Source: Nereocystis luetkeana (lineage: Eukaryota > Sar > Phaeophyceae > Laminariales > Laminariaceae). From it: DNA of 64,000 nt. Below the pieces are notes generated by a model. That model was given only the letters and a program-made list of their open reading frames with translations, did not search any database and had not been told where the DNA came from. The stretch is taken from the NCBI GenBank assembly GCA_031213475.1, contig JARUPZ010000025.1, positions 4,260,532 to 4,324,531 of the forward strand, in the 5' to 3' direction. This document shows, piece after piece, positions 24,889 through 56,542 of this stretch. Position numbers and translations under genes: made by a program. Numbering within the stretch: the stretch's first letter is position 1; every line of letters starts with the position of its first letter.

Positions 24889-25374
24889 TCGGGGGAGCAT
24901 GTAGGTATCTTCCAGTCCTCCCGAGCGCCCGGTTATCTCTGCCTTCCGTGTTGTGACCCTCAGCAAATCCTTATTGGTGGAACGTCGGTCGTCGAATTCG
25001 ATGTCGAATTTGCCGTTTACGAAGTTGAGGAGGGTTCCCCCGACGGCCTGTCACGTCCCGCAATCCAGACAACCACACCAAATCAGGCGACAGAAGGGGG
25101 AGGGAGCGGCAACGGGTCGAGGTTCCGTGGAATACTCTTGCGCAGAAATATAGCACGGCGAGGGAAGTATACAATCATACGTTTCCTACGGTGGCAAAAC
25201 CTTTACGGGCCGTGTGATCGCAGCTCGGCGCGACGGGTGAGTTACAGCTTGTCATCGGTGCTGTGTTTAGTGGATAAAGGCTACAGCTACATTGCGCGTC
25301 ACATACGCCGGAGCATCACAACAAAATCAAAACAATGTTGTCCTTGACACTGTTGGTAGCACGTGATATCTCAT

Positions 25375-25582
25375 CTCCGGACGGGCGGACATGCGAACGT
25401 CCCACTTCTGGTACCACGGAGGTCTTTGGGCCAGCTCTCCGGTTCGACAAGCCTCATCACGTGAGACACGAAGAAGTTGACGAAACCTACGGAGCGCGTG
25501 CCTTCCTATACAAACGCTTTTTTCGCCAGAACGGTTGATGTCTCCTCCCTCGATTAAAACGAGGGCGGCTCGGTACACCTCC
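25375..25582 (-). pseudogene. Relic of haloperoxidase exon 9 (lysine/arginine vanadate-binding motif)
   Basis: The CAG acceptor is kept next to 25582, and the reading opens with YRAALVLIEGGDINRSG, matching YRATLIIINDGAISRAG of the intact gene. The frame is then lost and GFVNFFVSHVMRLV is read in a second frame. One base missing after that valine returns the first frame, with TGELAQRPPWYQKWDVRMSA. The length is still 208 bases because the insertion and deletion cancel. The lysine of YQKW and the later Arg-Pro are still visible. The exon is followed by AT instead of the GT donor. Confidence 0.88.
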
Positions 25583-27547
25583 CTGCGAAGCGTGGAATTT
25601 CTGTCTCATGGTGATAATATATTCCTTTCTTCACACGGACACGTATTGAAGTAGTTTCGAGATACTAAACTGCAAGAAAGGGCGCATGGTACAGATAAGG
25701 TCGAAGTTGGGTGCTCGCGAACCGCGACTGTCACCCAGGCCCCGGTGGTGGCGTTATCGAAATGCCTCGTGTGTGGACAGGTGTCATCAGCGGGCGGCAT
25801 TCGTTACCTCCGCGACAACCGAAATATCGAGACGAAGGTCTACGCGAAGACATCGGGTGCAGTACCAGCAATAATAGTAGCATTGATTCAAGGTGGCATA
25901 CTTAAGTATTGAATATATAGAGCCATCCCACAGAAGGGGTGTACCAGACGTCCCTGAGCCCCTCACAATAGGAGCTCAATATCTCACCCGATACAACACT
26001 TTGAAGAAATTCGTTCGGGCCACCCGACCGGCGAGTGTATGCGCTATTTCAGAAACGACTATAATGCGAGTAAAAATACCATCCTAACTGGTAGTTCCTC
26101 TCTCAAGGAACTCGAATAGTCAGAAACCTCTGGCCATAAAAGTGCAACCCCTACCGTGGCGTGAATCTGTCGGTGAATGCAAGCCTTGAAAGGTCGCGGG
26201 TGTTGTTGCCGATTCACAGATTCACGAAGTTTTCCTCCTCCGACAAGGCAGGCTTGCCACCCGTTCGGAAAAAAGTGCAAACGGGTAGACCGTGCGTTTA
26301 CCGTTTTAGAGAGTGAGGGCCAAGTGATAAAACCAGCAACAGTTAAACACCAGCATTACCTAGTAGTAGTGACCGAGTGGTCCTCAGGGAATACAGTACC
26401 AACTTAATCCAATAATCAATATCCTGTGCACGCCACATGTTTGCGACATATCTATGTGCCCCTCGTAACATGTAGAGAATACAGTGCAGGTGGCTAGGCG
26501 GGCGTATATTGACGTATATTAACACGTGCGTATCATACAGATATATCAAATACTCAAATAAGATTACCGTCCGCTTCTTTATTTCCTTGATGTATAGACG
26601 GCTATTATAGGCGTTCCCTTATCGTAAGAGCAAAACGTAGATATGCATCGCATTCGAGAGTGACTCGCTTACCTTTTTTCTTTCTGTCAAATTCAAAAAT
26701 CAAGAAAGAACGAAGTAATGATTCATTTCCTGTACTACAGGAGCGTTGGCATATACCGTTAAAACGAGCCGACGCATATATATCAGAAGAGCTCCCATGG
26801 CAAGCTCTCACCAACGACTATCTTAGGCGCATGTTTATCTTCGCCTCTACGGTCGCGATAACAAATCTGAATTCGTGAAAACTTCTAATAAGATGCATCA
26901 TCAGTGGTAGTTGTTCCGGACGAACACGTGGTCTGCTGAGAACGGTTTTCCCGTGGAGTCCACCGTGAGCTGTCTCACTAGCTAGCTGCTGATTAATCAC
27001 AACACAGCGCGTAACGATCACGGCTTCGACAGTGAGTGGACGAACACCAGCGAGGTGCACGATTCGCTGTCTAAGGGACGCTTCGCCAACCACTTTAACG
27101 CCAATGCGAAACCAACACAGACAAGAGCTACGAGTGCCACGACATTCCAAAGTAAAAGGCCAAAACACCGCCGATGGTGCCGGTATAAACGCGACACGCA
27201 AACATAGGCTGCCGCTGTCTTGCTGCTTCTACTACCCAACCCAACCCAAGCTTTGTCCAGATAAAAGCACCGGCCGGAAAATACTCTAGCGTGGGGGTTT
27301 AGAACGTCTGGTTCTCGAAGCGAACAAGTTTACCGGCCAAGACGTGGAAAAGCCGTTTCCCGGACACGCTTCCCGGACGTGGTGAAACACTATATCAGGA
27401 AGACCAAGGGCCCTTTCTCGAAACTGAGTGCGGAGGGCCGAAGCAACCGCGTCTGTGGATCTTCTCTGCTATCTGATTGGATCCGCCACCTCGTTCATAT
27501 TGGCGAACAACCGGCACATAGGCCGAGTACCCTGTCAATCGTTCATT

Positions 27548-27653
27548 TTACGGCGGGCAATAGTTAACAGGACCAAATAGTGTTGGTAAAAATGGTTAAA
27601 TATATAGGTTTTTATGTATACCATAGGTCCTGTTAACTAGGGTTCCCCCGTAA
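27548..27653. mobile_element. MITE family A, copy 2 (inside the haloperoxidase pseudogene)
   Basis: This 106-base inverted-repeat element is closely related to that at 13488. It shares GGTAAAAATGGTTAAATATA and TTTATGTATACCATAGGTCC with that copy. The right flank is TA; the left flank has drifted to TT. It lies in the former intron between the relics of exons 7 and 9. Confidence 0.82.
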
Positions 27654-30600
27654 TAGTACGTACTGAGAATATGAGTGGGAACAGGAGTGTCACGAATATA
27701 CCGCGAACATGACACATATAACGTTTTGTCAATAATACGTGAGTCAGAGCTTCCTGGTATGAACAAAGCGAAATTATGAAAATGCAAAGCTTACAGCAAA
27801 TTACACGAGAGGGGCTTACCTAGCGTGCACATAAGGGCAGTACAGCACCGCCTGGGACATGAAATATATCACCCGTGGGCTCGACCCGAGACATACTGCT
27901 GCAAATCCTATGATAGGACATGCGTATAAACAGATGTATAAACTACACCTCACAAGCACGTGGGACGGGAATACCAGGGACCCGCAGCTATCGTTCCCGG
28001 TGTCGATGGATAATGCGCGATTCGATCGACGAGCGCCGAGCAAGATCAGTTCTGGTGTGGACGGTGGGCGTTACAACCGGTACACCTCCCTCTCAAGCGT
28101 GTCAACTTTGTGTGTCGTCAGAAGATGTCAATATTATTTCGACACCGGTCCATAGTTGGACCGCTCAAATAAATACTGGGTCACAAACGAGGGCGCGTCA
28201 ACATTTTCGAGCACACGGTTGAGGGCAGGTGATCAGGGAATATCACCACGTACGTGCGCGTTGTGGCTTCGGTCAGAAGTTGTACCTGCAGGCAGCTGCC
28301 GACAAGGGGCTATATCGGCCGCTGACCCGACAATCGAAGAAGCGCGACGACGTTTCAGTTGTAGGCATCGTTTTGCAGCAGTAGTAGCGGCTCCTCTATG
28401 GGAGCGAAGGATAGGTACTCACGTAGTTGGTGGTATCAGTAGCTACGGGGTTCGAAAAGTCGCGTATTGTGCGGGTTTACCTCTTAGTAGGTTCTACCGC
28501 CTACGCCTAGTCAGGTGCAGCGCCGTTGTGAAAACGGTTGAAACGGATGGAGATTGTGTTGAACGTGAGGGCGAGTGAACAATTGGGAACCAGCAGTGGC
28601 AAGGGAGTCATTCGTACTGGCGCAACGGATGGTGGTCGGTGCACAACTGCCAGCGAAATTCACGGACGACCAGCTAAATACCAATGTTTCAGCTGTCTAT
28701 GGGCATAATCTGTCGCATGTATGGGGATTCCGCGCCAACGACTGGGCCGGTGTAAACTGAGGGCTGCATTGGTGAATGTTTTATGCCACGACGCATTGCA
28801 CATCACGCCCTACGAACCAGACTTGGTTTGCTGGAACATTAGCAGCGCAGTCACGCCACGAAGGGCCGGGTCACGTTCGAATGTGTGTTCATTGTTTTCA
28901 CACTAGCACGTTCCAACGCGTGACGCGAACATAACCATTCTTCGATCATCGTTGGACTGATGGGTAACGGGCAGACAACCCGACAAAACTGCCTGGAACA
29001 CCAAGACTCCAAACTATCATCATCAGCGCACGCAGCTTTAGCATCGTTTGCCGTTCATACGAATAGGCTCGTTTGAATAATCTCTAAGCTGTACGAAGAC
29101 GAGTTCGTCATAATCGGTCATGTCTTTTACTCCCGGTGCAAGCGTCGCCCGCTGAGGGGACACGGTAATGGCGTCCAAGGCGACGTCTTCCGCCCGTACC
29201 TGGTTTGACCCCAACGATTCGGTAACGAGCACAACGTGCGAGACTGAACAACTCAGCACGGTACACGCTTCACGCGACAAGCGGCGTCTTGACGTATGCA
29301 GAATATTCAGCAGCTGAATAAATAATAGAAGCATGGGTGGTATTGCATGGCACGGAAAACAAAAAACCCCGCCGACGATGCAAAATCTAAATGTGAAAAC
29401 ACGTCTTTTTTCGGCAGTCGATCTCCAACTCAGCAACGATTGAATGGCGAACGCGAGGCAAAAGACAATTGTTCCGGAACGTGATACGCTCAGCATGTGA
29501 AGCAAGCGATTTCAGCGACCACACGCTTGATCATGAATTCACAAGCCTGGCCAACCCCGGAAAAGGTGGCAAACCGCAACTGAAAAGCGAGGGGTATTTC
29601 GTGGACACCAAGGGCGGCGGACCGAAACAGCTCCGACTGTGAATGAATATCGTCTGGGTTTTGGCCAGACGGCGACACTGTTCATATTATCAGCAAAGCT
29701 CAGCATAGAGGCCAAGGTATCCGTCGATCATCGGAGGTGAATTTCGCTGAGAGAAAGCAAGCTACGGGACCAGCCGTGTTCTGATCAACAGTCAATACGA
29801 TAGATAGATAGATAGACATTCGTCCACACCTGTGGCAGGGCCAACACCAAAGCCATGTCCCAGCAGTTTACACGTTCTCCCATCTATGTGCTATCGGTTC
29901 TAAGGTACCTCACTGACAAGAACGAAGTGGTGGCCGTGCGCGTATGTAACCGTCACCACCAGTAGGTTCCGTCAGAAAGGGGCTTGGATTGATATTCATG
30001 TTGCATATGTATACCATCTGCAGTAGTAGTAGAGCCCACACCCAACGCACACACACGTGAGGTAATACAGCCAGCAAATCGTCCAGTGACACGCAAGCAC
30101 ATTTACACTGCCCATGGTATGACGCGCGACCTGTTTGAGATGCGTCGGGAAAACCTCGTAAAACCCTACCGTGGGACACGTACGTGCTCTCTGGGTGCAG
30201 CGGAGGTGCATGTATGTTATCGAACACCTAAGATAGGTGAGCATGTCTGGATCACCCTATGCCGCCACAGTTGGTTCGTCTTCGACGTACTTTGAGGAAG
30301 TAATGCTCCAGGTCACGACCATCCAGTGGAGTACCGTGCATTGAGCCGCTTCCGAGTTCAGTGTCAGTGCTACACTGCCGTTATACCCGTACAGGGGCAT
30401 CTCAGAGATCATCCGAAACGACGCAGGTGGATTGCGTACGTGCAAAGAGAACAACGCGAAACTGACAAAGCAGTACTGGTGGGTTGCTTTGTTGCCCTTA
30501 ATTTTCATTGGACGAGACACACTGGGCGGAGTGACCCTCTTGTATCCTGGCCTTATCGAGCATCTAACGTTTCTTGTGTCGCCATGTTCACTGTCATGGG

Positions 30601-32101
30601 ATTGTTTGGTAGTCCGTGACAACTGCATTATATAGGAGCATCCAAGTTCGAGTGGGATACGGAGTCAGTAATCCGAGTGACGTGAAGGTGGCTTAGAAAA
30701 TGGAGGTACCCTCTCCTACCGTAGGACGAGGCTGTACAACATCGGCTCACAGTTGACATAGCAGCATGTGTCAGAAAATTACTACTGCAAAACGACTGCG
30801 GGTCTATACAGCCACTACCGAGCGCATACCACCACATCCTCGGAGCTGAGGGCAGAAGCACTTGGGATGCTTTAGGCGGGCCTGTGGTGATACACCGTAA
30901 ATAGCGAACGCGGGTCAACCGGGAGGCCATGCCAGGGAATAAGCAGCCACGATTCAAACGAGATGTATGTGCGAGAAGGAAGGCCCGAGCACGGAGACAG
31001 AAAACAATGTCCGGAATATTCGAACGGACAAACGGCGAGATTTTACGAGGCACGAAGCGGGGACGATAATGTTGTCAGGGATATTAGGGCCCATGTCAGT
31101 GTGTAGCCTTGGGAGGTTCGATTCACGCACTGCTCCCCGCTGTAGGCAACTGATGAGCAAGACAGTCTATATTGTCTACCCCGTCTTCGTCCTGCCCACC
31201 ATGGAATCGGAACATTGCGTCACGTACAGGGAACCAGCTCAGGCCGTCGACATGCACGGTCACTGATGGAGTTGCGATCGCTTCACTCGTAGTGGGCCAT
31301 TCTTGGTGTTCAGCATAGAATAGCTGGAGTCACCACGAGCTTGTTCGGGAAATAAGCGCGGCATTCCACATTCGGGCGGCTAGGTAAAGGACATGGTTAG
31401 GTTGGGACACTGAATCACATGAACACCACCGCTCGGACAAACGGAGCACACCGGTCAGGGTTTAGCCGGTGGGAACGTGGCCGTTCGAGACATTCGGACG
31501 AGGTATATAGTTCTTGGGGAGACGCTATTTCATACCTGGTAGGAAATGCTCTCCTTTACTAAGCGGGATCCAATCAGTGTAAATGCCACTTGAAATGATT
31601 GCATTAACAGATGATCACTACGTCCATGACATCTGACACTTATCGTCTTGAAATGATTACATCAACTGTTACAGGTAGGTGGTTGCACAGCCGGGGCAAG
31701 AAATCACCTCCTAAAGTATCTGCACAATGCACTGAGTATATAACGTCAATGGGAACCATTACCGTTGCGGAAAATGAACGTTAGTATGGCTTTTTTTCCC
31801 ACTAATAATATAGAAACCGTCGCTTTCCGGTATTCGCTATTTTGGGTTTCGTGCGTACGCCAGCCAATCTTAACAGTGCCGCACGAAGAGGGTCGTAAGC
31901 CATTTGCGTAGCTGAAAGCATTCCGTAATAATATAGCATGCGTTATCACGGACTTATCGTTCGAGCCCATGATGCGGGACTCGCTTGTTTACGTTACACA
32001 TAAGTCTACTAAGCTCGCCATCATCCCATTCAGTTCGAACGACCATGGCGAACGTAATTCATGACCGCAGGACGCGTGGATGTGGCTGAACTTTAACGTA
32101 C

Positions 32102-32247
32102 CCGGCGGGACTCGCCATGTCAACGGCGATACCCACAGGCCGGTTGATCAGCAAGCCGTCTTCGTCTCCGGCCAGCACCTGCTGACACGGTTCGAAGCAG
32201 TCTTCAACAATGACATCAGTGAGGGCGTTGAAGGCCACTCTGTCGGC
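32102..32247 (-). pseudogene. Relic of haloperoxidase exon 3
   Basis: This is the best-preserved exon of the dead copy. It is 146 bases, the same as the intact exon 3 at 49426-49571, with an AG acceptor, an open frame and the identical CCGG/GTACGT donor context. About half of the residues match the intact copy (for example AGDEDG, GIAVDMA and PAG), so the duplication is not recent. The plus-strand open frame over it at 32080-32352 is only its shadow. Confidence 0.88.
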
Positions 32248-33490
32248 CTGAAGCGTTCAAGGCGACATTCGAAGTCGTTAAGCACGGTTGATGATACCTG
32301 CACGAAGGGAAACCGAGACTCTCCAGCATGTAGGTCATATGCTAGGTTATAGTCCTGTATACAGCCGAACGTAAGTTGCTTTAACGAGATCTGATGGGAA
32401 AATCGAGCAGATTATATCCCCCATTGTCAAGAAGGTCCTACGGTACTGGTTTGGTTCCTCCACGGCCGTGTGATTGAAGAACGCCAGCAATCCAGAGTCG
32501 GGGATATGGCGCTCGACACTACCTACTATGACCTTCGTGGTCGTATGGTGTTTGCCAGCTGGTCATGGCGCTTGGCAGATGATCACCGCAAGTTTTTCAA
32601 ATGAATAAACGTTACTTGTGCATAGCTCCTGGTTGGCGACGGACATACAGCGAACTCAAACAATGCGTACGTCGAGTTGTGTTGCCACGGTGTCAACCTT
32701 TCCCTGTGATTAACGCGATCCGAATAATCGAGGCCGAAATCCATATCAAATATCAGCGATCGGTTTGTGTGTCGCTCGGGACGGATGAATTCTTAACCTA
32801 CTGACTCATACCCTCGATGGCGCTAGCGGGGATAGATAACCAGGGGCATGTTCGAGTATCAAGATAGATGAGGACGCAATTCCTCCCCAGCTACGAAGAC
32901 GAGGAGCCCATGAAAATACTGCCAGTAATCCGCTTCTACGTACACGCCTCCCGTTCACAAACTACCCGGCCAGATATTAGCATCGACCACAGGCTTAACA
33001 CAGCGGAAAGGAGTTGCAAATATTGTCCTACGTTCTCCAGCTGCTTGCGCCCGTCCGACGGAAATGTGTGAGCTCAAATTTCACCTCCTCCATTCACGGC
33101 CAAACGTTTTTGTTTCGTGGTCTGGCAAACTATGGAAAGCACGTATAAGTCATTTTTGGATGATGGCCTATAAAGCCAATATAGCACAACATTGTCCTCT
33201 GAATTTTAACGCGGCAAAATATCGTGCTCGACCCTCAGGTGAACGTGTTCAAGGATGTCGTGTGACAGCGATTCGTGGGACGTGGCCGCGGAGGAACCGT
33301 CTCCATTATGTTGGTGAAGCGCGTCAAGCGATGCCCTGACCTCGGTCTCCGCCGAATCAACTTGCTGGGCAAGCGCGCGGTAGCTCTTTCTGTGGGCAAT
33401 ACTTGAAATGGTGACAAATGAACTATCAACGAAGTTGGGCACTGTTGACCGTGTTTTAACTCATCAAGGAAAGCAGTGATTTTCTGTGGC

Positions 33491-33580
33491 CGACGATAAA
33501 GTTGACAGAACGGGCGCATTGCACAGGCTCATATTCGACGATAAAGTTGACAGAACGGGCGCATTGCACAGGCTCATTCG
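33491..33580. repeat. 45-bp tandem duplication
   Basis: Two consecutive units, 33491-33535 and 33536-33580, are identical over about 42 bases (CGACGATAAAGTTGACAGAA onward). They differ only at the end (ATATT versus ATTCG). The near identity marks a very recent duplication. It sits between the exon 2 relic of the haloperoxidase pseudogene and a family B MITE. Confidence 0.93.
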
Positions 33581-33583
33581 CGC

Positions 33584-33827
33584 CGTTCTACGATACAGGT
33601 TCACCCAAAATTATTTTTCCGAGGCTCCTCACTTGAGGAGCTCCATACCTCACTTGAAACCTGACTGCAGCAAACATAAAATTGGGTCCCGATGGATAAT
33701 CCCATCCCCCAAGTATAAAATGTCGTCATCTTTCGAAACAACATTGGCATCCCGACTATTGTGGGTTAAGGAAGCCCGTCATTCCGAAAACATTTTTGCG
33801 GAAATGTGCTACCTCTATCGTAGAACG
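33584..33827. mobile_element. MITE family B, copy 3 (clear terminal inverted repeats)
   Basis: This is the clearest copy of the family. The left end is CGTTCTACGATACAGGTTCA and the right end is CTACCTCTATCGTAGAACG, which are inverse complements over about 17 bases. The interior contains GAGGCTCCTCACTTGAGGAG, a short palindrome shared with other copies, and no reading frame of note. It immediately abuts the 45-bp tandem duplication. Confidence 0.8.
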
Positions 33828-34223
33828 TAATATTCAAACTCACACCGTGGATAGAACCGGGCCACGCCCAATACCGCACTACACATATTTGGTACCTTGT
33901 CTGCTTACGCCTTCAACCGGTGCTGGCCTATCACCACAGCAGTGCTGGGGCCCAAAACATAAATGTTTCAGTGCGAGAAGAAATCGTGTTTACGATATAC
34001 ATGTTCCAACAACTGAAGCCCGTCACAGCACCTTGTTTACGACGTTACTCCTCACCGTGCATGGTATGTAACCGAATTATCCAATGTTGTTGCCGATGGT
34101 CATCCTTGCATGTTATTAAACGAGGTGGTGCGATCAACCTCACCTGTAGCGAGCCCCTCGAAAACGAGCGTGGCTTTCGTGATTGGTACGTCACGAGCTC
34201 CTGGAGAAAAAAAGTGTTGTAGT

Positions 34224-34565
34224 GTCGCCCCGGTGGTTCAAGTGGTTAACCTCGAATTGTACTTGTGTTTGAGTCCTGGGTTCGAGCCCCAGGTGGGTCG
34301 GACATTAGAAGACTTGATTTGCAAAAATAAAAATATTAAAGGATTCAGTTGTTGAGAGCGCCTTGCAGCGTGGGTAGGCACAATTCGATGCGAGTCGACG
34401 AGGGGAGAAAAGGCTGAAATCTTCTCGCGATAAAAATGAAGGCACGTACCGTAGCGGGAAGGGGGTAGAAGAGTCTGCCACGTGACCACCGATCTGAGGT
34501 ACGAGGTGGAAGGAGAGAGAGAAGACGATGTGCGAAGATAATAAATGGGATGAGCGAAAACAAGC
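34224..34565 (+). mobile_element. tRNA-derived SINE, full-length copy 1
   Basis: The first 80 bases resemble a tRNA. A box-like GGTGGTTCAAGTGGTTAACC is followed by the B box GGTTCGAGCCCC, and CTGGG/CCCAG pair around a seven-base TTCGAGC loop as in a T arm. A body of about 260 bases follows, ending near ATAAATGGGATGAGCGAAAA. Further copies lie at 42244-42586 (reverse, long poly-T), 43395-43697 (reverse, degenerate) and 48331-48590 (5'-truncated). An internal RNA polymerase III promoter would drive transcription, with mobilisation by a LINE located elsewhere. The 187-codon minus-strand open frame over this region is not a gene. Confidence 0.87.
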
Positions 34566-36584
34566 AAACAATAAGTAGTGTATTTCTCAAGCAATGCGTG
34601 TGCCACACACGAATACAATTAATTGGTGAAGATAGTGGTTCCCCCACCTTTCTGTATACCCGTGTGCGCCGAGAAAACACATGCATGCGAAGTGAGTGAC
34701 GGTACTCACATGCCGTTGACGTCGAGAGCACTATCGTTGGCTGCCTAAAGGAAGCGCCCGCGGCTCCAATAATTATCATCAACTGTGTTCGTCGATGGCG
34801 ACTCTGCGTGATCCACACCGCCAAGTAGCCCGTAGGCGGCCTGTTCGTGTCTCGACGAGGTTGCATTTTCTCCTGGGTCGGGTAAATAACAATGGCGATT
34901 ACCGCCACAGCTACAGCCGATCATGCAAACCCCTCATGTTGCTACCCTGTAGCCGGGGACACTCTTGATTGATTCTGCTTTTCGGCTGATACTCAGACAT
35001 ACGTTCTAGGGACCCGATGCACGGGGTACGAGTGCCGAGTAAGTACGTATTTGGTGTGTCCCGAGGCCAACGCGGGGGTTCTACAGCCTGATTTAACTAC
35101 TGCTCTCTGACTGGCGACAGTACGTGCAAGGGTGAATGACCTGCCAATGGGCAGAATCGATACGCTCCGTCGCGATCTCTCTGTTCAATGGGTTAACCTG
35201 CGTTTCGTGACGTGCCCTCCAACGTGTCATCTGCCCGTGAAGTAACAACTTACATTGCTGTATCGTTAATAGTTTTGCACCGGTTAGAAGTTGCGTGTTT
35301 CAAAATACAACGTACAGCAGATAGATCAGTGTCGTAGTGTCGCGCGTCGTTGCAGTAGACGGTGCGTTACCTGTACAGATGGGGGGATGCGACGATAGTT
35401 GAGTGTCAAGCGTGGGCTGGACACGGCGTTAGCATCAATATCTTTGGCAAACGCCACTCGTTGTGTCCATGGCATTCCATGGAGTGCATTACAACAAGTT
35501 TCCAAAGGCGGAGCCGCTAGCGGGAGCTGGAGGACTAGGAGCATCTCGTAAATTCTGATTCGGCTCCGAACAACATAATTGTCGAAGAAAATGCAATGAA
35601 TGTCTTTATCCAGATTCGAGAGACGGCCACACCAGTGTTTTTGGCCAGACAAATATTTAGATACCCAGTTGACCGCATTGCGTGATACTTCGGTCCTTCG
35701 AATACGGCGTCACATCGTTGCAGTCACGTTCAGGCCATACCCAACAAATTACCGTACGCGTATATATGTACGGCCAACTCTTCGGCCCACTGTTTTATCA
35801 AGGCCGAACAGTTTGAAGTGCATGATGCCATAAACTTCTGGTACTGACAGCAATCGAGATTGCAATCGAGTAAAGCACAGTACGATAGCGGTGTGCATAT
35901 GCAGGCAATCTTCATCTCGGTCCTTTGTCGTACCCACGCTGCTGCTGTCGCTTTAAACGATTCCGGGAGCCGTTGTTTCTTTTTCACTTTTAAATGCTGA
36001 ACCGCATTGATGAGGGTATCAAATTACGGTATTTTGATAGAGAAAAAATGAGATAACGGATATACTTCGAAAATTACGCACGGCAATTTATATGTAATAA
36101 ACGAACGCCTCACAGCTGTGCTCCAAGATTCGTCTACCGACCTCCTTGCAAGCTGCGTGTGTGTGATGCTTCGACCGCGCGTACAATATTTTTTAGAACT
36201 CAGGCCTGTTATCTGACCACGAATTTTTCGTATTAATTGCGTATAGTACATGATTTCACATCCGATTGTCGTCGGACAGCAACGCGCAGACCTTGTTCCA
36301 ATCAAACCGTCCACAGAAAAAGCTCGACTCGACATTAATGAGCGACAGCTCATTCGAAGGCTGCTGTACAGCCCCACAGGACTTGTCAACTTTTTTTCTT
36401 GGAGTTGTACACAATTGGTTTGCTTTCTAAAAAAAACCGTCCGTTCCCATTTTTTGTTTCGTTCCCATTTTTCCGTTTTGTCTGTTATTGGCAGACTTAA
36501 TATTTGCATGTATGTGTGAACTATGTGCCCCAGAGCGGAGTTGGTCGCTGCTGATCGCCTGGATGTGGCTAAAAATATGTGTTT
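34566..36584. other. Gene-poor spacer with one dispersed-repeat fragment
   Basis: No gene is recognised. At about 35967-36025 a fragment with TTTCTTTTTCACTTTTAAAT and GCTGAACCGCATTGATGAGG recurs in diverged form at about 40195-40250, 42665-42735 and 63275-63340. A long minus-strand open frame near the end of the interval is listed separately. Confidence 0.5.
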
Positions 36585-42243: not shown

Positions 42244-42586
42244 GTTTTTTTTTTTTTTTTTTTTTTTTTTCTCATCCCATTAATTATCTTCGCACATCTT
42301 CTCTCTCTCCTTCCAACTCGTAACTCAGATCCGGGGTCACATAGCAAGCTCTTCTCCCCCCTTCCCGCTACGGTACGTGCCTTCATTTTTATCGCGAGAA
42401 GATTCCAGCCTTTTCTTCCCTCGTCGACTCGCATCGAATTGTGCCTACCCACGCTGCAAGGCGCTCTCAACAATTGAATCCTTTTTTATTTTTGCAAATA
42501 AAGTCAAAGTTCGACCCACCTGGGGCTCGAACCCAGGACTCAAACAAGTAGATTTCGAGGTTAACCACTTGAACCACCGGGGCGAC
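42244..42586 (-). mobile_element. tRNA-derived SINE, full-length copy 2 with long poly(A) tail
   Basis: The reverse-oriented relative of the 34224 element. The tRNA-like head lies at the right (CCACCTGGGGCTCGAACCCA, then TTAACCACTTGAACCACCGG), and the left end carries an uninterrupted run of about 27 T, the complement of the poly(A) tail. The intact head, long pure tail and close match to copies 1 and 3 mark it as the youngest copy in the window. Confidence 0.9.
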
Positions 42587-43360: not shown

Positions 43361-43394
43361 GTTTTGTTTGTCTTTTTATTCATCACTTTTCTTT

Positions 43395-46261: not shown

Positions 46262-46499
46262 GCGTTATATGATGATAGAGGTTCACCCTAAGTTTTCTGA
46301 GGCTACTGACTTAAGGAGCTCCATACCGCACCCGAAAACTGATTTCAGCCAAAATCAAAATGCATCGCGGCGACTAATCCCATGGCCCACGCCTACAACA
46401 CGTTGTTTTTCGAAATCAAGATTAACATTCCGACGATTTGGGGTCGAACCTTGGGATTCGGAAACAAAATCGCGCAAATGTACTACCTCTATCGTAGGC
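46262..46499. mobile_element. MITE family B, copy 5
   Basis: It starts near GATGATAGAGGTTCACCC and ends TACTACCTCTATCGTAGG. The interior includes TCTGAGGCTACTGACTTAAG and CCGCACCCGAAAACTGATTT, shared with the copies at 6161 and 33584. It lies about 0.57 kb upstream of the vBPO start codon. Confidence 0.78.
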
Positions 46500-47067: not shown

Positions 47068-47304
47068 ATGAAGGGGCTTACGGGATCCGCTGGTGCTGTG
47101 GCTGTTATCGCCCTCGGACTCCACCCTGTAACAGGGGCAACCTCAATAAGACACGGGCTGGCCGACCACGGGTCAACTGGCCGTGGCAACGATGTAGGGT
47201 TGCCGTCGGCGAGCGCGTCGGACAGCGGTGCTGCACGTGGTCGCCACAGCCGTGGACGCCGCCTCCAGGACGTCAACGATGATGCTCTCGACGTCAACGG
47301 TACG
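47068..47304 (+). CDS. vBPO: vBPO exon 1: signal peptide and variable N-terminus
   Basis: ATG at 47068; the exon ends at a GTAAGT donor in phase 0. MKGLTGSAGAVAVIALGLHP gives a short hydrophobic core typical of a secretory signal, with probable cleavage after VTGA near residue 23. Residues 24-79 are rich in Ser, Gly, Arg and Asp (for example RGRHSRGRR), unlike the conserved enzyme body, and probably form a pro-segment or flexible leader. Confidence 0.8.
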
Positions 47305-50300
47305 GTAAGTTTCGGAATTCGCTTCGTATGCGTCTACACCACACACCAAACTGGTAGATAGATGGACAGGTAGGGGTATGTCAGCTAGCTCCCTCTCGAA
47401 CTGAATATGGGTGTGGTATGTACATATACATACGGTGTTGGGCATGGACTGCAACACGTATCCTTCTTGAGGTCGCAGCATTTACGTACAACTGTTCAGG
47501 CCTGTCTTCGAAAGGTTAACTGCGCACGTCGACTCGTCCAAAACCTACCAGCGAAGACAACCAGGGGAATCTAAAAAGTCGGTTGCGAGGAAGCTTACAC
47601 TACAGTAATTCATGCGGGGAAGCAGTTTTAGAACAACATGACCTGGTGGGCTTCAGCAATCGGTACATACCGGGTACGCGGATTCCTCTTACAAATCCCA
47701 AAGCTTCAATCGCGATGGTCCAGACCTGGTTGCGGCTCGAATTTCGCCTTGTAGCTGGACGCATGTTGCAAAATATATTCGAGACACGACTGAACTTATG
47801 AATAGGTAGAGTACCACAGTGTCTGGCACCTAAAAATCGTACATGTCGCTTGACGGGGTTGGATACCGAGTGACACGTTGGATGGTGTAGCGAAGTACGC
47901 CCCCCTGATGTGTCGTTGCTGTTGTTGGGCTTCCACCGTTCGACGTACTCCTTTCCCTTGTTATCGTGCTCGTCGCCCATGTCGCCCACAGCCGGCAGAA
48001 AGAGCTACCAACGCGCTCACGCAGCGGGTAAATTGGGCGGAGACCGAGTTCATGGCATCGCTTGACACTCTTCACCAAAACAATAGAGACCATTCCTCCG
48101 CCGCCACATTCCACAAGTCGCTGCCGCACGACAGCCTGGGACAGGTGCGACCGCTCTGAGCCACGTTTTTTTGCCTCGCTCAGATAGAGAAGGCGAACGT
48201 GTGTTGCAGTTGGGGTCAAAGAAAGCACGCAAGTAAGTGTATCCTTTAGGTATGTTGGATTTGTTAGCAGTAGATAGATAGGACAATGGCGCGATGATAC
48301 AAAGTTGGACGTGGAACGTTTTATATGCCCTTTGACTTTATTTGCAGATAGAAAAAAAAAATAAGGATTCAATGGTTGAGAGCGCCTTGCAGCGTGGGTA
48401 GGCACACTTCGATGCGAGTCGACGAGGGAAGAAAAGGCTGAAATCTTCTCGCGATAAAAAATGAAGGCACGTACCGTAGCGGGAAGGGAGCACGAATACC
48501 CTGCTATGTGACCCCGGATCTGAGTTACGAGTTGGAAGGGGAGATAGAAGAAGATGTGCGAAGATAATGAATAAGATGAGCAAAAAATAAATCTAAAATG
48601 GATACATGACTGCTGTGTACACTCAGGGAAGGATCGCAGAACAAACTGTGCAATGCTTCTTGTAGCGTTTCGGTGTTAGTGCGTGTTGGAAAGCTGTCAC
48701 CGGGGACTTGTTAATAAATGGCGCGCACATACACGGAACTGAAGTACGTAATTTTTCTTGGTTATAGAAGCCCTCACGCCTGTAATTGAAGCCGAAGTGA
48801 ATCGTCTTTTCCAATAGATCATACGGAAACATAAATAAATGAAACACTTTACTCCCAGCCTGATAAACACCCAGGGAATATATTTTTTTGCGAACGGCAG
48901 CAAGAGTATGAGGCGGTACACCTAATCCCATGAGATCGATCTCGACTCCGATCGTATGGTGGTAGGAATATCTTATCGCTTTGGGCACAGCACGACGTTC
49001 GCCACCGCGGCACCACAAACAGAAGTACGGTGACCTTGTTGATTTAATCGGCCGTCTTCCGCACTGGTTTAGGGAGAAAAATGATCGTTTCTCTTTTCTG
49101 CTTCAAGCTAGCGGTGATAAGCTGGCGAACCCCGTAAATCATTCGAATGTCTACGCGGTAGTGTCTAACGCGATATACCCTGGCACGTGCATTCTGGCGT
49201 TCCAGCGTCATCTGACGGCAGGGGACTAACGCTATCATCTTCAAAGCTTCTTGCACATGGGCCACCGAAAACACTTAATATACCCCGTTTCTTGCCGAAA
49301 CAATACTCGGGGCTACGTGTACGGGAAAACGATGTCCTTGGGGTACATGCTGTACAGTACTAGCTTACCCTGAGCTTGATTTATTCCAGCGTGTTGTTTC
49401 GATACCATCGCCCCCTACGCTCTAGGTCGACAGCGAGGCCTTCGAAATCCTCACCGAGTGCATAGCGGAAGGCGATTTCGACAAGTGCGAGCAGGTTCCA
49501 GCCGGAGACGAGGACGGTTTCCTGGTCAACCCGCTCGGGGGCATCGCCGTCGACATGGCAGGACCCGCCGGGTACGTTTGTGTACATTAATATGCACACG
49601 CATTACAGTCTTGAATTGCTTGGATCATGCCCTTATCTACTTAATAGGACGAAATATAATTTATCGTTTCTTTGTAACATGAAACGGCTAGTCCAAACCT
49701 AGGTCATAGAGGGCGTCCGCTGTTTGCTCCACCCACCAATGCCCGTAAGATTGGCGACTCGGCTACTTTGGAGGCAGGTCGTGGTTCAATATCAGTAGAG
49801 TAGTTTAGAACCTAACCTGGTTACATATGTATTGACCATGTCGAAGGCACAGATTTTCTGTACGTCGTGCGATGTTCGGGGGGCATGACGTAGACGAGGT
49901 ATCCCCAAACAAATACCCTCTGCATCCATCGCACAGTGGAATCAGTGTGAGATTTCATATTTCAAAGACGACCTTGACTCTGGACGACTTGCTTCATCTC
50001 CACTCAAGCGCTCGTATCCTCCCGCTCTTGTGCGGTATGGTTCTTCTTGTTATGGCCAACCCACCCCTCCTCCTCGTTCCTGCTTTGTTCGTGGCCCGGG
50101 TTCCCGCCTAACGTTCGAATGGTGGCTCTTCGTTACTTCACATGGCTCCTCCCGGCGGTGTGTCAATATTTTCGGCGGGGCATCTTTCACCGCGGCGATC
50201 GGGTTGTTCCCGTGTACAACGACGTCGATGACTGGCGTGCGGGCGATAAACAACCCAACATTTTACCACTTTGGTCCGGCTTGTGGCTTGGCATCACCTT

Positions 50301-53300
50301 CATGGCTGTTCGCAAACTTCGACCTCTATGAGCAGCCCCGCCTTGACCATCCCTAGTGCTTCTGGTCTCAACTCTGCGGACCTGGTGAGTCGCACTCGAT
50401 GGTAGTTGTACGAGCCCGAAGTGGTTTGATGAGAGACTGGTTGAATGAGTTTCTGATAGGTTCCACCCTGCCACGTACGAGCCGGTTTATCTCACGGCCA
50501 CTGTTGTCGCCTTTTGGTAGGCCTTGAGATTTGTAAATATTTACTTCTTTTCCCTAGCACGAACTCGTCGCGCCCACCTCGGGTGGACGACATATGAGAC
50601 GTGCCCGCGCCGAATCGGATGCGTTTCATCACTAACCACCCAGGCGGCTCAATTGGCGGAACTGTATTGGATGGCCTTGACGAGGGACATACCTTTCTCA
50701 ACATACGGCAAGGACGAGACAACTCGGGCGGCAGCAGGTAATACCCACTAGTTTGTTTACATCTGAAATGAAGATGCTATCAAAATAAATTTCGCTGGTA
50801 CATAATGGTCATCCGTCTTAAGGGGAAGGTTGGGCGTAGATCCCTCGACCGAATTCGACAAAGACGGCCGTAAAACTAACAGCAGTTGAGACCGAAATGA
50901 TGTGTTACCCATCTGTCACCTCAGAATACAATCTCGAGAGCGTGGCGCTGGCGGGTTCTCCTGTTGCCGATGGTAAATACATACTGGCATTCAATACGAT
51001 CCAAGTATCCCGACCCAGACAAGCTGTGCTTGTGAGTCAGACAATATTGCCTCGATCGAACGTAGATGCGAGAGCGTCTTAATGTTCACCAGGGTATCAT
51101 ATAGCTTTGTTGTTGTCCTTGTTACGTTTGTGGGCGCACGTGTATGTATCGTGCCCACCGTTACTCGATACACAGCGGTTCTCATTGACTCCATTCCATC
51201 GACAATATGCATTCGGATGAACCTCAGATAACCTGGCCACCATGCCGGGGTTCGCAAACATGAACGGCGTCGCGGTCGGGTCGGATGGCAGAGCTGACCC
51301 ACAGACACAGCTGTTCCGGTCCTCTGCCCTTGGTGTCGAGAGAGGTCCCTTCATTTCTCAGGTGCGTTGTGCAACGTCGTCCGGTGTGTGCAGGCTTTGA
51401 GAAAACGACTGCCCAGATATTTAATCCGTGGGAATCGCTCGGTTCAGAGTTTTGACGTTCCCCGTTTTCAGGTTATCGTCTACCGCCTCGCGCTCGCGTT
51501 TCCGCAGTGTCTGAGTTGGATACCAGCATTATCGAGTCTACGTAGCTCAAACAAAAGCTTCACGGAAACGCCGTCATTCCTTGCGTTATTCAGATATTCG
51601 TCAAAGCCCCAGCGTACCACCCGTGCTCTTTGGCTGATACTTTTGCGTATTACAGCACGCCGGTTGGCGCACGTGAAAAGTGTACCGTGCTTAGTTGTCC
51701 CGTCGCACGCTTGTTATTCCCGTTACCTTCTGTTTTGTGCCAAACCAGCTGCTGGTGAAGGACTTTACGTTGGACTCCATCGAAGTGACCCCTCAGCAAA
51801 CGACGTTCGCGTCCGGAGTAGACTACATGGCCGACTACGACGAATGGCTCTTTATACAGGTTAGAAAAAATACGAGCATACGTATCGAAGTAAAAAGACA
51901 AAATTGTACGCTAATGAAAGTTATTCGTAGGAGCTTCCTGCTCCGGGTATTTTGTTCAAGTGCCCCCCTGGTTAAGCGGTGGTCCGATGAAGACATATAT
52001 ATATTCAATAGCACACTGGCGTATGTGCTACAATCTTAGTGTGTGACATGTTAAAGTCGCGCAATCACCTTTGAATGAGACACACGCCTGTCTAACGTTG
52101 TCCCGCTTAGCCAAAACCAATAGTTGAGCAAGGAATTAATTGCGTGCTCTGCAGCTTGATATCAAGCATTTATGAAGAGACCAACACTGTAAGCGCATTT
52201 TGGTTTTTTATTTCGTGCACTATTTGATGTCTTTCTTAAAGGCCGGCCTTCGGAGGGCCAAGCCAATCCTGTAGGTGCTAAAGTATATGTTAACAGACAG
52301 CTAGATCGTGGTCTCCATCGGGGTCGAAACGACTGGAGTGGGCGGTTATCGACGGAGCACCTGCGATCGCAGCAAGTTGAAATACCCGATTGGTACTGCA
52401 GAGGGCTTATTCGTCTGGTTCGAACCTGTTTGCTTGCCGCACCCTTCAACACATACTCCGCTCGGTTTGAACGGTTTCAGAACGGTGGCAAGCCGGACTC
52501 GCAGGAAGAGGTAGACCCCGTGAAGCGGTACATCCGAAACGCCCGCGACCTATCCAGGACAGTGGCCACTGATACCATCAATACGTGAGTACCCTGTCTC
52601 TTGCGCGTGTTGTGATTCCAACTGCTAGCTGCTGCTGGCGACGCCTCAGCACTTGACTGAGAACGATGAGTAATTGTCCTTCTATGATCAAGGCAGAAAC
52701 AGATAGAGATCCCTGATGGTAGTTGTCTGCAGTTTAATTGCTTCCGGCAAACGCCAACTCTCACCCCAGGTGGCATTGCTCGATCGCCTTCACTTACACC
52801 CAGAGTTCGCACATTTTTTCGCACCATCATTTATTTGTCACTTCAGTAGGCGAGCGATCTCAACATGTATCGTGGTCGAAATGGGGTTCCTATCCTGACA
52901 GTGTACGTACGTTCCATTGCTCGGCAGGGAGGCGTACCGAGCCACGCTAATCATCATCAACGATGGGGCTATCAGCCGTGCCGGCTTCAACGGTCCGTAC
53001 AGAGAAAGCGGTCGTCAAGTCGGTTTCGTAAACTACGGCGTGTCCCACGTTATGAGGCTTGTCGGAACCGGCGAGCTGGCTCAGAGGTCCTCCTGGTACC
53101 AGAAGTGGAACGTTCACAGGTTCGCCCGTCCGGAGGTGAGGTTCTACTTCATTTCCCAATGCCGCTGATAACCACCCTTTTTATTCCGTTATGTGTTCTG
53201 CGTTCCCAGATTCGATACCCCATATAGGTCGAATTACCTTCAACGATACTGATACCAGCATAACACATACCGATATTTTATGGTCACCCACTCGCGTACT

Positions 53301-56300
53301 GCACACCGCCCGCAGTTGCACAAATCTCAGAGTTCTCACCACCGCAACGAACCTAACCTGGTACGCTTCCCCACGCGTTTGATATAACCGGGTAAAAATA
53401 TAACAACATGTCGGAACGCGTCTCTCCCCCCCGCATGGAACGCGCCCTCCGTCCGTTCTCGTTTGGCGCAATGACAGGCCGTTGGCGGAACCCTCCACAA
53501 CGTCATCAACGGCAACCTCGACGTAGAATTCCACGCCTCGCTTCTCAACAACACCGAGTTGCTGACGAGGGTGGCGGCACGGAATGCCGAGATCACTGGG
53601 CAATCTGGAGGAGTAGGACAGACCTACCTCCTTCCACAGGTGATGAGTAATACAAGTTGCCCGTGTCGCATGACAAACAAAAATGGTTGTTGGACCTCAA
53701 GGTGAAAGTCGCGCAGCGATTGATAATTGGCCAACAGCTGGAAATACCTTGAAACACCTGTGCAACAGGCCTGATGGGAGGTTATTCACCGCCGGTCCAA
53801 GCGAACACCGTAGCCCCGCCTGAACCAGTAGGTGTCTCCAACATTCGTCCGCTCATATATTCTCCGTGAGTACTTCGAGTAGCAGCTGGATCCTTCGGAT
53901 TCGCATCCCAACCTCCACCCAATGTTAAGACCTGCACATACATGTAGACCGATTTTTTATATGGCCGAACGTGCTAGTCGACAGTCTATTCGTGCTCGAC
54001 CATCGAATAGCTAGACAACTTCGTACCGATAATGGAACCCACGCGGACTTCCATGCGGCCAACAAGCCGACTCTCCTGATCACAGATTATATTATTTGTG
54101 CCTTCTACCTAGAATTCGTTCACCGTGTGCGCGCTCGTTGTTGTTTTCACAGGCTGTCAACAAGGGCTCGCCAACTCACCCCTCGTACCCCTCTGGGCAC
54201 GCCGTCCAGAACGGTGCCTTCGCAACTGTACTCAAGGTGATGTCGTCGTTTTGACCCACACCGCAAGCGCTTTGATATACGTTCAGACAACGGTACTTTA
54301 CAAATATTGTCATGACCCGGCACCGAGTGAGAATTGCAGTCTGAGCTCCAGCTTGGAGCAAGTTTACCGGGGGTTCATGGTTTTTATGGTAAACCCTGTA
54401 GACTCATGTTATCCCTTTCAAGCTTCAACCAGAGGAATTTCACAGTTTCAGCCTTACGCATTACATCTTTCGTGTACCTCGTTTTAGATCAGCCCAAGCC
54501 ACCTGTTGTCCGGTAAGGATGTTGCCAGGGACCCAACGATCGCACTTGCCTCATTTTGGTATTACCGCATACGTTAGCTCTATGGGCAAACGAACCAGCA
54601 CGTACTAACCCACAGGTAACCCCGTTAGATACGCCCGGTTTTCGTGCCCACAGTATCCGGGTGTTTGACGCCAGTATCTCAGTACATATTGTGTTCCATG
54701 TTCGTTCGGCTGACGCCGGTTGATATCACAGCGAACGGGTGCTATGGTGCTCGATTGAGACGTGCATGATATTCACGTAGAGCGGAGGGGTTCGTGCGAT
54801 GTAGCCACCCTGTTTGTTTGATCGCCATCGATTTTTCCATGCAATTCACCCCTTAGAAGGACATTCATCATTATTGCAGTGTTGAAACGTAGTTTTTCGA
54901 GTGGACACACACTTTGTCTCGATGGGTATTGATGACCTGGGAAACTCGCGATCTCGTGTCATGGCAGTCTAGACAGCTGGCACTGCGAAGCGACACCAGG
55001 CAAACCCTCAGCTCACCGTCATGAAACAACCGCACGCAAGTTCCTTTACGATGTTGTCTTCGTTTCATCTGCCTCCACCCGCCACCGTATATGGCAGGCG
55101 CTTGTCGGGCTGGAGCGTGGTGCTTCGTGTTTCAACAATCCCGTGTTTCCCGATGACGAAGGATTGATCCTCCTGCCGTACACGGGTGACGACTGCCTGA
55201 CGTACGAGGGAGAAATCAATAAAATGGCCGTCAACGTCGCTTTCGGCAGGTAAGGATAAGTGGTTATCTTCATCTCGACCGCCGGGGAGTATAGATATTT
55301 GCGATCCGTCTGACATCGTACTAGCCACATCTGGCTCACCAATACTCACGAAAGCTTGCCCCGGCCGGAGCGTCGTGTATTGAAGTATCGTATCTACGAC
55401 GTGCGTTTTCTTGCATTGTTTGCTGCAATGTTCAGGCAGATGATCGGTATCCACTGGAGGATGGACGGCCAGGAAGGCTTACTTCTCGGTGAAATGGTCG
55501 GAGTGCGGATTCTGCAGCAGGTGAGACAACAACATATATCCAATACATCTCTAACGACCTCTTTCCCTCGTCATTACCCCAATTATCCGATATCCTTCGC
55601 GTACAGTTAGAGATGCAGTGGTCGTTCAGCGCACGCGGAGGATGGTCAAATAGTTGCGGAATGTTTTGTATTCAGCACGCCCTCTGCCTGATGCAGTGTT
55701 TCGGAATTAATCGTGGCTACGGAGCGGTATATTATGCGCTATTGATTACCGAAGGGAAGGCAGTGATGCATCACGGGCGTCGTAATAGCGGGTACTCTAG
55801 GCGATGGACTGTTATTCAGCAGAAGAGCCAGTGCGTAGACGATAGCTTGACAGCGTAGGGATATGGCATCGCTGAGAATATCGCTAAAGAAAGGGGTGAC
55901 TCAAAAGATCCGACGAGCGCCGCAAATGGGTTGCAGATCAGCTCTCCGCCACAAAACATCGGCATGCCCATATTGCCCTGGGTGTGTCCGAGAAGAGATA
56001 TTACTTATGGTAACCCGAAATGATGATAGGATTAACTATTGCATCTCCAGTAGGACCCTCAAAGCACGTATAGGTACCCTCTTAGAGGTACCGGAGAGAA
56101 CCAGCGCAATGTAGGCACATCTCGTCATGCTGCAGGCGTCTTTGCGGAATGTAGTATAAATGACCCTGATGAAAGTGGCGCCGACGTATAGTCCCGCCAC
56201 GATGGCGTGAACGCTTCAAGGTATTCCCGGGCTCATCCAATGTCCGCGTTGCTGTTGACGACATGAATATACCAATAATAGGAGGGTGACGGTCGACCGC

Positions 56301-56542
56301 TACAGTGTGTCAATATGTCGGAGATAATAGCCTTGCAAGCGTGAAAAAAATAAAATTATGATGCACGTGTTTCTTACATCGCGTCGACACATTCGCAGGA
56401 GGCCGTGGCTTTCCCAGAGAACGAGCCCTACGAGTTCCGTCTCATGTCAGGCCAGACAATCAGGCTCGAGGCGGACGGTTCATTCTTCGTCGACAACAAG
56501 CGATGCAGCGGCGACGCCTTTGTGGGGGCTGACTTGTGCTAA
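47068..56542 (+). CDS. vBPO: Vanadium-dependent bromoperoxidase, secreted, 14 exons, intact
   Basis: The enzyme oxidises bromide (and iodide) with H2O2 using a histidine-bound vanadate cofactor. Exons: 47068-47304, 47992-48144, 49426-49571, 50357-50384, 50644-50737, 51228-51361, 51749-51859, 52481-52584, 52928-53135, 53478-53639, 54153-54236, 55098-55249, 55436-55520, 56399-56542. All phases agree and give 613 residues, close to Ascophyllum nodosum vBPO (557 mature) plus a signal peptide and leader. Residues 1-23 are a hydrophobic signal peptide, so secretion to the wall or apoplast is expected. Vanadate-pocket residues by recalled alignment to A. nodosum K341, R349, S416-G417-H418, R480 and H486 are K395, R403, S473-G474-H475, R538 and H544. 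H468 sits at the bromoperoxidase-type H411 position. Other conserved stretches are AAQLAELYWMALTRDIPF, FHKSLPHDSLGQ and SSWYQKWNVHRFARPE. No stop or frameshift interrupts the chain. A decayed paralogue lies head to head upstream. Confidence 0.93.
48331..48590 (+). mobile_element. tRNA-derived SINE, 5'-truncated copy in vBPO intron 2
   Basis: Starts at CTTTGACTTTATTTGCAGAT, corresponding to the position just after the tRNA-like head in the copy at 42244. It then follows the body closely (GTTGAGAGCGCCTTGCAGCG, CTTCTCGCGATAAAAAATGA). The tRNA head is absent, as in a 5'-truncated reverse-transcribed insertion. It lies in the intron between vBPO exons 2 and 3 and in the same orientation as the gene. 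Confidence 0.88.
48623..49018 (-). other. 131-codon antisense open frame in vBPO intron 2, unknown
   Basis: The frame reads through words such as GVEIDLMGLGVPPHTLAAVR and LEKTIHFGFNYRREGFYNQE. It is longer than most chance frames here and lies between the SINE and vBPO exon 3. No domain is recognised and no splice or start context supports it. It may be a chance frame or the remnant of a transposed sequence. Confidence 0.2.
50925..50972 (+). other. Possible cassette or duplicate exon in the vBPO gene
   Basis: A 48-base stretch between CCTCAG and GTAAAT enters with two bases and leaves in phase 1. It could therefore be spliced between exon 5 (ends phase 1) and exon 6 (enters with two bases) without disturbing the frame. 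It would read YNLESVALAGSPVAD, which resembles the start of exon 6 (NLATMPGFANMNGVAVGSDG). I left it out of the gene because exon 5 joined directly to exon 6 already gives the family pattern. Confidence 0.35.
52928..53135 (+). CDS. vBPO: vBPO exon 9: lysine and arginine of the vanadate pocket
   Basis: Reads TEAYRATLIIINDGAISRAG through GFVNYGVSHVMRLVGTGELA to SSWYQKWNVHRFARPE. K395 and R403, eight residues apart, correspond to K341 and R349 of the A. nodosum enzyme, which bind vanadate oxygens. Acceptor CAG at 52927, donor GTGAGG after 53135. The exon has the same length as its relic in the dead copy. Confidence 0.93.
54153..54236 (+). CDS. vBPO: vBPO exon 11: PSGH catalytic motif
   Basis: An 84-base exon encoding AVNKGSPTHPSYPSGHAVQN and then GAFATVLK. 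S473, G474 and H475 match the vanadate-binding Ser-Gly and the acid-base histidine of the family. H468 matches the histidine that typifies bromoperoxidases, where fungal chloroperoxidase has phenylalanine. The acceptor is TTTTCACAG and the donor GTGATG. Confidence 0.95.
55098..55520 (+). CDS. vBPO: vBPO exons 12-13: second arginine and the vanadium-ligating histidine
   Basis: Exon 12 (55098-55249) reads ALVGLERGASCFNNPVFPDD and on to YEGEINKMAVNVAFG. Exon 13 (55436-55520) continues QMIGIHWRMDGQEGLLLGEM. The codon of the pocket arginine R538 is split by the phase-2 intron (AG at the end of exon 12, G at the start of exon 13). H544 in GIHW corresponds to H486, which bonds vanadium directly. Cys pairs in exon 12 (SCF, DCL) match the disulphide-bearing loop of brown-algal enzymes. 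Confidence 0.93.
56399..56542 (+). CDS. vBPO: vBPO last exon and stop
   Basis: Begins EAVAFPENEPYEFRLMSGQT and ends in GADLC and a TAA stop at 56540-56542. The YEFRLMSG and FFVDNKRC elements and the terminal cysteine match the beta-strand tail of known vBPOs, so the 3' end of the gene is complete. Confidence 0.92.
   Translation, partial: EAVAFPENEPYEFRLMSGQTIRLEADGSFFVDNKRCSGDAFVGADLC

What the first reader, a model, noticed from the sequence alone, without database searches (positions are those of the whole stretch)
24889..56542. Head-to-head pair of vanadium haloperoxidase genes, one intact and one dead
An intact 14-exon vBPO on the plus strand and a collinear set of six exon relics on the minus strand face each other across about 13.7 kb of repeats. 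Identical exon lengths for three relics show that the duplication included introns, so it was a DNA-level inverted duplication, not a retrocopy. The relics still show about half amino-acid identity in exon 3, so the event is old. Brown-algal haloperoxidase families expanded by local duplication; this is a view of birth and death within one locus.
Basis: partly seen in the sequence, partly recalled or inferred. Interest (0 to 1): 0.75.

Follow-up and report, generated by a model that had tools for sequence, protein, structure and literature searches.

The report
Intact and dead algal haloperoxidase genes
A working haloperoxidase gene of a brown alga, probably a kelp, faces an old decayed copy of the same kind of gene near one end of a very large family cluster: a clear but ordinary example of genes being born and dying by duplication.

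Summary
The plus-strand gene at 47068-56542 is as described: 14 exons, GT-AG introns, 621 aa, seven vanadate-site residues kept, close to Ascophyllum bromoperoxidase 1QI9. The minus-strand relic is larger than reported: 34935 down to 22875, traces of 13 of 14 exons (E14 not found), E6 and E8 twice. It is dead: 8 stop codons in 537 comparable codons, frame-breaking indels, lost splice sites, and near-equal divergence at the three codon positions.

The pair is not isolated. It lies near one end of a cluster with at least 45 exon-9 places over 1.6 Mb of one contig. The relic belongs with the intact gene plus six sampled array genes; two other clades are rejected. It is nearest the intact neighbour (85/86 support), but two rival branchings inside that group are not excluded. 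Six paralogues carry all 14 exons and 15 of 44 adjacent copies are in opposite orientation, so introns and orientation do not show one inverted duplication. It is an old unprocessed pseudogene in a known, strongly expanded kelp family.

The parts
47068..56542 (+). Intact vanadium haloperoxidase gene, 14 exons, 621 aa: 47068-47304, 47992-48144, 49426-49571, 50333-50384, 50644-50737, 51228-51361, 51749-51859, 52481-52584, 52928-53135, 53478-53639, 54153-54236, 55098-55249, 55436-55520, 56399-56542
   Evidence: Gene model with AG/GT at every intron edge; phmmer to 1QI9 E 6.9e-204 over query residues 70-621
22875..34935 (-). Decayed haloperoxidase relic (unprocessed pseudogene), traces of E1-E13 in order with E6 and E8 twice
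   Evidence: Exon-by-exon tblastn/blastn and alignments; 12 of 14 exons E<=0.01, 0 of 20 shuffles
34712..34935 (-).
   Evidence: tblastn E 5e-7 for its 3' part, 0.11 for its 5' part
33246..33392 (-). Relic exon 2, 80% DNA identity, one 1-nt deletion, acceptor lost
32102..32245 (-). Relic exon 3, no internal indel, splice dinucleotides kept
30833..30884 (-). Relic exon 4, stop codon
30260..30349 (-). Relic exon 5, acceptor lost
29580..29715 (-). Relic exon 6, first copy, both splice dinucleotides lost
29089..29199 (-). Relic exon 7, no internal indel, donor lost; 5' intron flank still similar to the intact gene (score 84, next best 49)
28426..28527 (-). Relic exon 8, first copy, three stop codons, acceptor lost
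27402..27530 (-). Relic exon 6, second copy
26165..26264 (-). Relic exon 8, second copy
25375..25585 (-). Relic exon 9, five indels of 1-2 nt, donor lost
24889..25047 (-). Relic exon 10, 72% DNA identity to the intact gene against at most 63% to any sampled paralogue; donor lost
24429..24512 (-). Relic exon 11, 14-nt deletion that cuts into the vanadate-site Ser codon, stop codon
23147..23300 (-). Relic exon 12, stop codon
22875..22955 (-). Relic exon 13
34225..34600 (+). Dispersed repeat (tRNA-like head by eye) in relic intron 1; other copies at 42251-42585 (-) and 48334-48586 (+, in intron 2 of the intact gene)

Best explanation
The window holds one working and one dead member of a large tandemly expanded vanadium haloperoxidase family of a brown alga (kelp by inference). 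An ancestral 14-exon gene was copied at the DNA level; one copy stayed under selection (47068-56542 +). The other lost its function early after the split and has drifted since: stops, indels, exon 14 no longer found, and a partial repeat of the E6-E8 block, most likely from unequal exchange between or within copies. In synonymous change the split is about as old as the split of the intact gene from the sampled array genes farther along the contig. Shown: the structure, the decay, membership in the group of intact gene plus array. Inferred: that the neighbour is the direct sister, the early loss, the unequal exchange, and the order of events.
For: Gene model and 1QI9 match. Relic exons in order with homologous edges. 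Intact gene Ka/Ks 0.18-0.20 against five paralogues; relic branch at codon positions 1, 2, 3 = 0.30-0.31, 0.24-0.25, 0.36-0.39 against 0.05-0.06, 0.05, 0.20-0.22 on the intact branch (three array genes as third point in turn); 8 stops in 537 codons, within the neutral simulation's range at rates 0.15 to 0.37, so this count does not pick one rate. Tree: relic+intact 85/86, E1-E5 91/92, E10 alone 85/84; AU rejects two other clades. Intron flanks: intact gene most similar, mean z 3.41 over 30 flanks, next L047 2.73. Genome search with the relic: the neighbour is the best non-self hit for E9/E10, E3 and E2 (that query held a few linking residues from the intact gene).
Against: The sister relation is not significant against REL+array (p-AU 0.26) or REL outside both (0.11), and drops to 64/49 without E10; E6-E9 and E11-E13 alone do not join the two. 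By exon DNA score the neighbour is best in 5 of 13 exons (E1, E2, E3, E5, E10); in E4, E6-E9 and E11-E13 another copy scores higher. By peptide score another copy leads at E1, E4, E5, E7, E8 (second copy), E9, E12 and E13. With the relic split into a 5' and a 3' part, only the 5' part joins the intact gene (82/83); the 3' part is unplaced. As many intron flanks pass z 3 with L047 as with the neighbour (12 each). Only 11 paralogue loci were in the trees, of about 50 exon-9 places listed.
Confidence: 0.72

Rival explanations
1. Relic and intact gene are two separate old lineages kept side by side near the cluster edge from before the array expanded; they are neighbours but not each other's direct duplicates, and the inverted order came from a later inversion.
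For: REL+array and REL outside INT+array are not rejected; Ks INT-REL 0.74 is close to Ks INT-array 0.69-0.73; 15 of 44 adjacent places are in opposite orientation.
Against: Best tree joins them (85/86); E10 and intron flanks favour the neighbour.
Confidence: 0.3
2. The relic is a composite of two dead tandem copies: a 5' copy (E1-E8) and a 3' copy (E6-E13) fused by deletion. This is compatible with either reading of kinship.
For: E6 and E8 occur twice; the copies are 61% and 52% alike, less than each is to the intact gene (63-70%). L049 is another copy in which E1-E8 are clear and only weak traces follow. The 3' part does not join the 5' part in the best tree.
Against: Two neutrally drifting copies of one internal duplication are also expected to be less alike to each other than to a conserved gene; holding the two parts together is not rejected (p-AU 0.38 all exons; 0.32 on E6+E8). 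An array copy shows an internal E3-E11 block duplication (L022, L051, L023).
Confidence: 0.4
3. The relic is a processed retrocopy.
For: None found.
Against: Exons are separated by intron-sized gaps at homologous positions, with some intron flank similarity.
Confidence: 0.01

Closest known systems
Ascophyllum nodosum vanadium bromoperoxidase (PDB 1QI9)
   Same: phmmer match over residues 70-621 of the intact protein, E 6.9e-204; Lys, Arg, Ser-Gly-His, Arg, His of the vanadate site stand at K403, R411, S481, G482, H483, R546, H552 (residue roles and species name of 1QI9 recalled)
   Different: About 70 residues more at the N terminus than the crystal chain; halide preference of the window gene unknown
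Saccharina japonica vHPO clusters (Ye 2015 PMC4421812, passages seen; Yuan 2025 PMC11765636, abstract, results and discussion seen)
   Same: Same family; dozens of tandem copies on one chromosome, rich in transposable elements
   Different: 'pseudogene' occurs 0 times in Ye's main text and 0 times for Yuan in the search listing; the window gives a worked example of a dead copy
Paralogues L032, L033 and L045-L048 in the same genome
   Same: All 14 exons recovered, 63-96% aa identity per exon outside E1 to the intact gene
   Different: Of 27 comparisons of 3.2-kb array pieces, 16 match over 3.2 kb with introns at 93.7-100%; the other 11 match over 216-2006 bases at 77-91%. Many array copies are thus far younger than the window pair

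Membership tests
Ascophyllum-type (group 1) vanadium haloperoxidase | Full-length homology to a solved member | tested here: met
   1QI9, E 6.9e-204, residues 70-621
Ascophyllum-type (group 1) vanadium haloperoxidase | Vanadate-site residues K, R, SGH, R, H | tested here: met
   All seven in identical alignment columns; roles recalled, not from a call
Ascophyllum-type (group 1) vanadium haloperoxidase | Pfam PF01569 gathering score (a general PAP2 model, not specific to this family) | tested here: not met
   23.7 bits against cut-off 27.2, E 4e-5; the PDB match is far stronger
Ascophyllum-type (group 1) vanadium haloperoxidase | Peroxidase activity and halide preference (bromide or iodide) | not testable with these tools
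   needs expressed enzyme
Unprocessed (duplicated) pseudogene | Intron-separated exons in parental order | tested here: met
   13 of 14 exons in order
Unprocessed (duplicated) pseudogene | Disabling changes and loss of constraint | tested here: met
   8 stops, indels, lost splice sites, near-equal codon-position rates
Unprocessed (duplicated) pseudogene | No functional transcript | not testable with these tools
   no RNA data
Direct inverted-duplicate pair | The two are each other's closest relatives | tested here: inconclusive
   85/86 support, alternatives p-AU 0.26 and 0.11
Direct inverted-duplicate pair | Same arrangement at the syntenic locus of related species | not testable with these tools
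   no other brown-algal genome held
Processed retrocopy | No introns | tested here: not met

The most novel reading that the evidence does not exclude
The window pair may be what remains of the stem locus from which the large array grew: the intact gene branches outside all six sampled array genes, and the relic with or next to it. The middle of the gene (E3 to E11) may be a recurrent place of unequal exchange that makes and kills copies: an E6-E8 repeat in the relic, an identical E3-E11 block duplication in an array copy, and a copy in which only E1-E8 are clear.
Probability: 0.25. Interest if true: 0.45.

Novelty: new member of a known kind. Interest (0 to 1): 0.3.

Why it matters
Vanadium haloperoxidases underlie iodine and bromine chemistry in kelps, and their gene numbers vary widely between species. 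A well preserved dead copy beside a constrained living one gives a neutral yardstick for the family and a reminder that counts of intact genes leave out losses. It does not change what is known about how the family expands.

Tried and rejected
Retrocopy: rejected, exons are intron-separated. A relic from a different haloperoxidase clade: rejected by AU tests. A recent internal duplication of E6-E8: rejected, copies only 61% and 52% alike. A second exon 7 between the E6/E8 second copies: an alignment with the intact E7 scored 31 against a shuffle maximum of 27, but the relic's own E7 gave nothing (18, at the shuffle mean), so left open. The 48-bit hit of the relic's E12/E13 to C25:5594812 looked like a closer relative; I read it as an effect of E12 and E13 lying in one open frame there, so that two exons score as one. 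tRNA and Rfam scans of the window gave nothing. Two versions of the chance control counted zero everywhere, also for the real relic, which I put down to the frame field; they are discarded and one search replaces them. The splice-edge printout used rough edges and is not used; splice losses are read by eye. The neutral simulation of stops fits rates from 0.15 to 0.37, so it does not date the death.

Left out of trees: L036-L040 (C4 and C17 copies, only E6/E7 to E13 recovered at most), L049, L050 and the 3.2-kb array pieces; 11 paralogue loci were used of about 50 exon-9 places listed. The 45 places were typed; they include the window gene, and two of them (4901121, 4906407) belong to one internally duplicated copy. 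The AU trees had a background topology that I fixed by hand.
Full report
What is there. The window is G000:C25:4260532-4324531 of a 465-Mb genome in 1987 contigs. On the plus strand, 47068-56542, there is a 14-exon gene with AG and GT at every intron edge, an ATG start and a stop, coding for 621 aa. Its protein matches vanadium bromoperoxidase 1QI9 (Ascophyllum; species recalled) at E 6.9e-204 over residues 70-621, and K403, R411, S481, G482, H483, R546 and H552 stand in the vanadate-site columns (residue roles recalled). Pfam PAP2 is matched only below its cut-off (23.7 against 27.2 bits).

The relic. Exon-by-exon comparison finds exons 1 to 13 in order on the minus strand from 34935 to 22875; exon 14 was not found. 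Twelve of 14 exons reach E<=0.01; 0 of 20 shuffles gave any, the other strand of the stretch gave none, and three other window stretches on both strands gave one weak E14 hit (E=0.008). Exon 11 is weak by tblastn (0.023) and is seen as a DNA alignment with a 14-base gap. Exons 3, 4, 5 and 7 have no internal indel; the other nine have them in the alignments. By eye, splice dinucleotides are lost at E2, E5, E6 and E8 acceptors and at E6, E7, E9 and E10 donors (first copies of E6 and E8). E6 and E8 occur twice; the two copies are 61% and 52% alike, while each is 63-70% like the intact gene, so the repeat is old.

Decay and age. Against five paralogues the intact gene has Ka/Ks 0.18-0.20. Intact against relic: Ka 0.316, Ks 0.738. 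With three array genes in turn as third point, the relic branch has 0.30-0.31, 0.24-0.25 and 0.36-0.39 changes per site at codon positions 1, 2, 3; the intact branch 0.05-0.06, 0.05 and 0.20-0.22. With L041 as third point the figures are 0.31, 0.26, 0.50 and 0.05, 0.03, 0.14. Eight stops fall in 537 comparable codons; neutral simulation gives means of 5.6, 8.4, 9.5 and 11.6 at rates 0.15, 0.25, 0.30 and 0.37, and 8 lies within the range of each. The near-equal positions, more than the stops, say that the relic has been free of most constraint for most of its separate history (inference). Intact-relic Ks is close to the 0.69-0.73 between the intact gene and three array genes, so the pair split at about the time the array lineage split off.

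Kinship. A genome search with the intact protein gave 82 matches, a lower bound by the tool's own note. From its list I counted 45 exon-9 places on C25 between 4.20 and 5.81 Mb, the window gene included, four on C4 and one on C17. A further gene at L050 was not in that list. Trees used 11 paralogue loci. All exons: relic with intact gene 85/86; E1-E5 91/92; E10 alone 85/84; all but E10 64/49; E6-E9 and E11-E13 do not join them, without rejecting it (p-AU 0.43 and 0.37). AU tests on all exons, user trees with a fixed background: relic+intact 0.82, relic+array 0.26, relic outside both 0.11, relic+L041 9e-5, relic+L042 clade about 4e-45. By DNA score per exon the neighbour wins in E1, E2, E3, E5 and E10; in E4, E6-E9 and E11-E13 other copies score higher. 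By peptide score other copies lead at E1, E4, E5, E7, E9, E12, E13 and the second E8. Intron flanks favour the neighbour in the mean (z 3.41 over 30 flanks; L047 2.73), though both have 12 flanks over z 3. Split into 5' and 3' parts, only the 5' part joins the intact gene.

What this means for the reading. A DNA-level copy is shown. An inverted duplication as one event is not: six paralogue loci carry all 14 exons (the chaining there keeps exons in order by design), and 15 of 44 adjacent places on C25 are in opposite orientation, 7 of them head to head. Much of the array consists of blocks of young copies: of 27 comparisons of 3.2-kb pieces (26 between successive fetched pieces, one with the window gene), 16 match over 3.2 kb with introns at 93.7-100%, and 11 match only in part, at 77-91%. 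One array copy carries an identical second E6-E11 stretch 5.3 kb on, with the junction inside E3. L049 shows E1-E8 clearly and then only weak hits, the best an E10-like stretch with two stops at E 0.025. These look like younger cases of the kind of damage seen in the relic.

Literature. [quoted passage not shown] Yuan 2025 (PMC11765636, abstract, results, discussion) reports 88 genes, 58 tandem duplications on LG3 and abundant transposable elements. Jensen 2026 (PMC13198595, abstract and one results section) reports about 70 further sequences. A search for papers holding vanadium, haloperoxidase, brown algae, pseudogenes and tandem together found 0; in a looser search, none of the 11 listed papers held both 'haloperoxidase' and 'pseudogene'. 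That covers only the held open-access library.

Verdict. A good, well resolved example of birth and death in a known family; interest modest.

Noticed in passing
G000:C25:4799595-4884574, 4906407-5007102, 5053285-5098239: Exon-9 places of the haloperoxidase array have regular spacing of about 17 kb, 20 kb and 22.5 kb in these three runs; the fetched pieces within the runs are 93.7-100% identical over 3.2 kb.
   Followed up: partly
L022, L051, L023 (G000:C25:4899621-4908125): An array gene with a tandem internal duplication of 5286 bases from inside exon 3 to past exon 11; the two E6-E11 stretches are identical over 3219 bases, so very recent or an assembly fault.
   Followed up: partly
L049 (G000:C25:5227500-5237499): A haloperoxidase copy in which E1-E8 are clear; in the following 4.3 kb only weak hits follow, the best E10-like with two stops (E 0.025).
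   Followed up: partly
C25:5594770-5595012 (L034, L029): Exons 12 and 13 lie in one open frame, as if intron 12 were lost in this paralogue.
   Followed up: no
window 34225-34600, 42251-42585, 48334-48586: A dispersed repeat of about 350 bases with a tRNA-like head by eye (possible SINE); a capped genome list (40 of 771 candidates scored) shows 40 places over nearly all of the 293-base query, the window's own included, the other 39 at 92-95%. ARAGORN and Rfam do not call it.
   Followed up: partly
window 18857-20518 +: A 553-aa open frame rich in glutamine and serine, without a Pfam match at E<=0.01.
   Followed up: no
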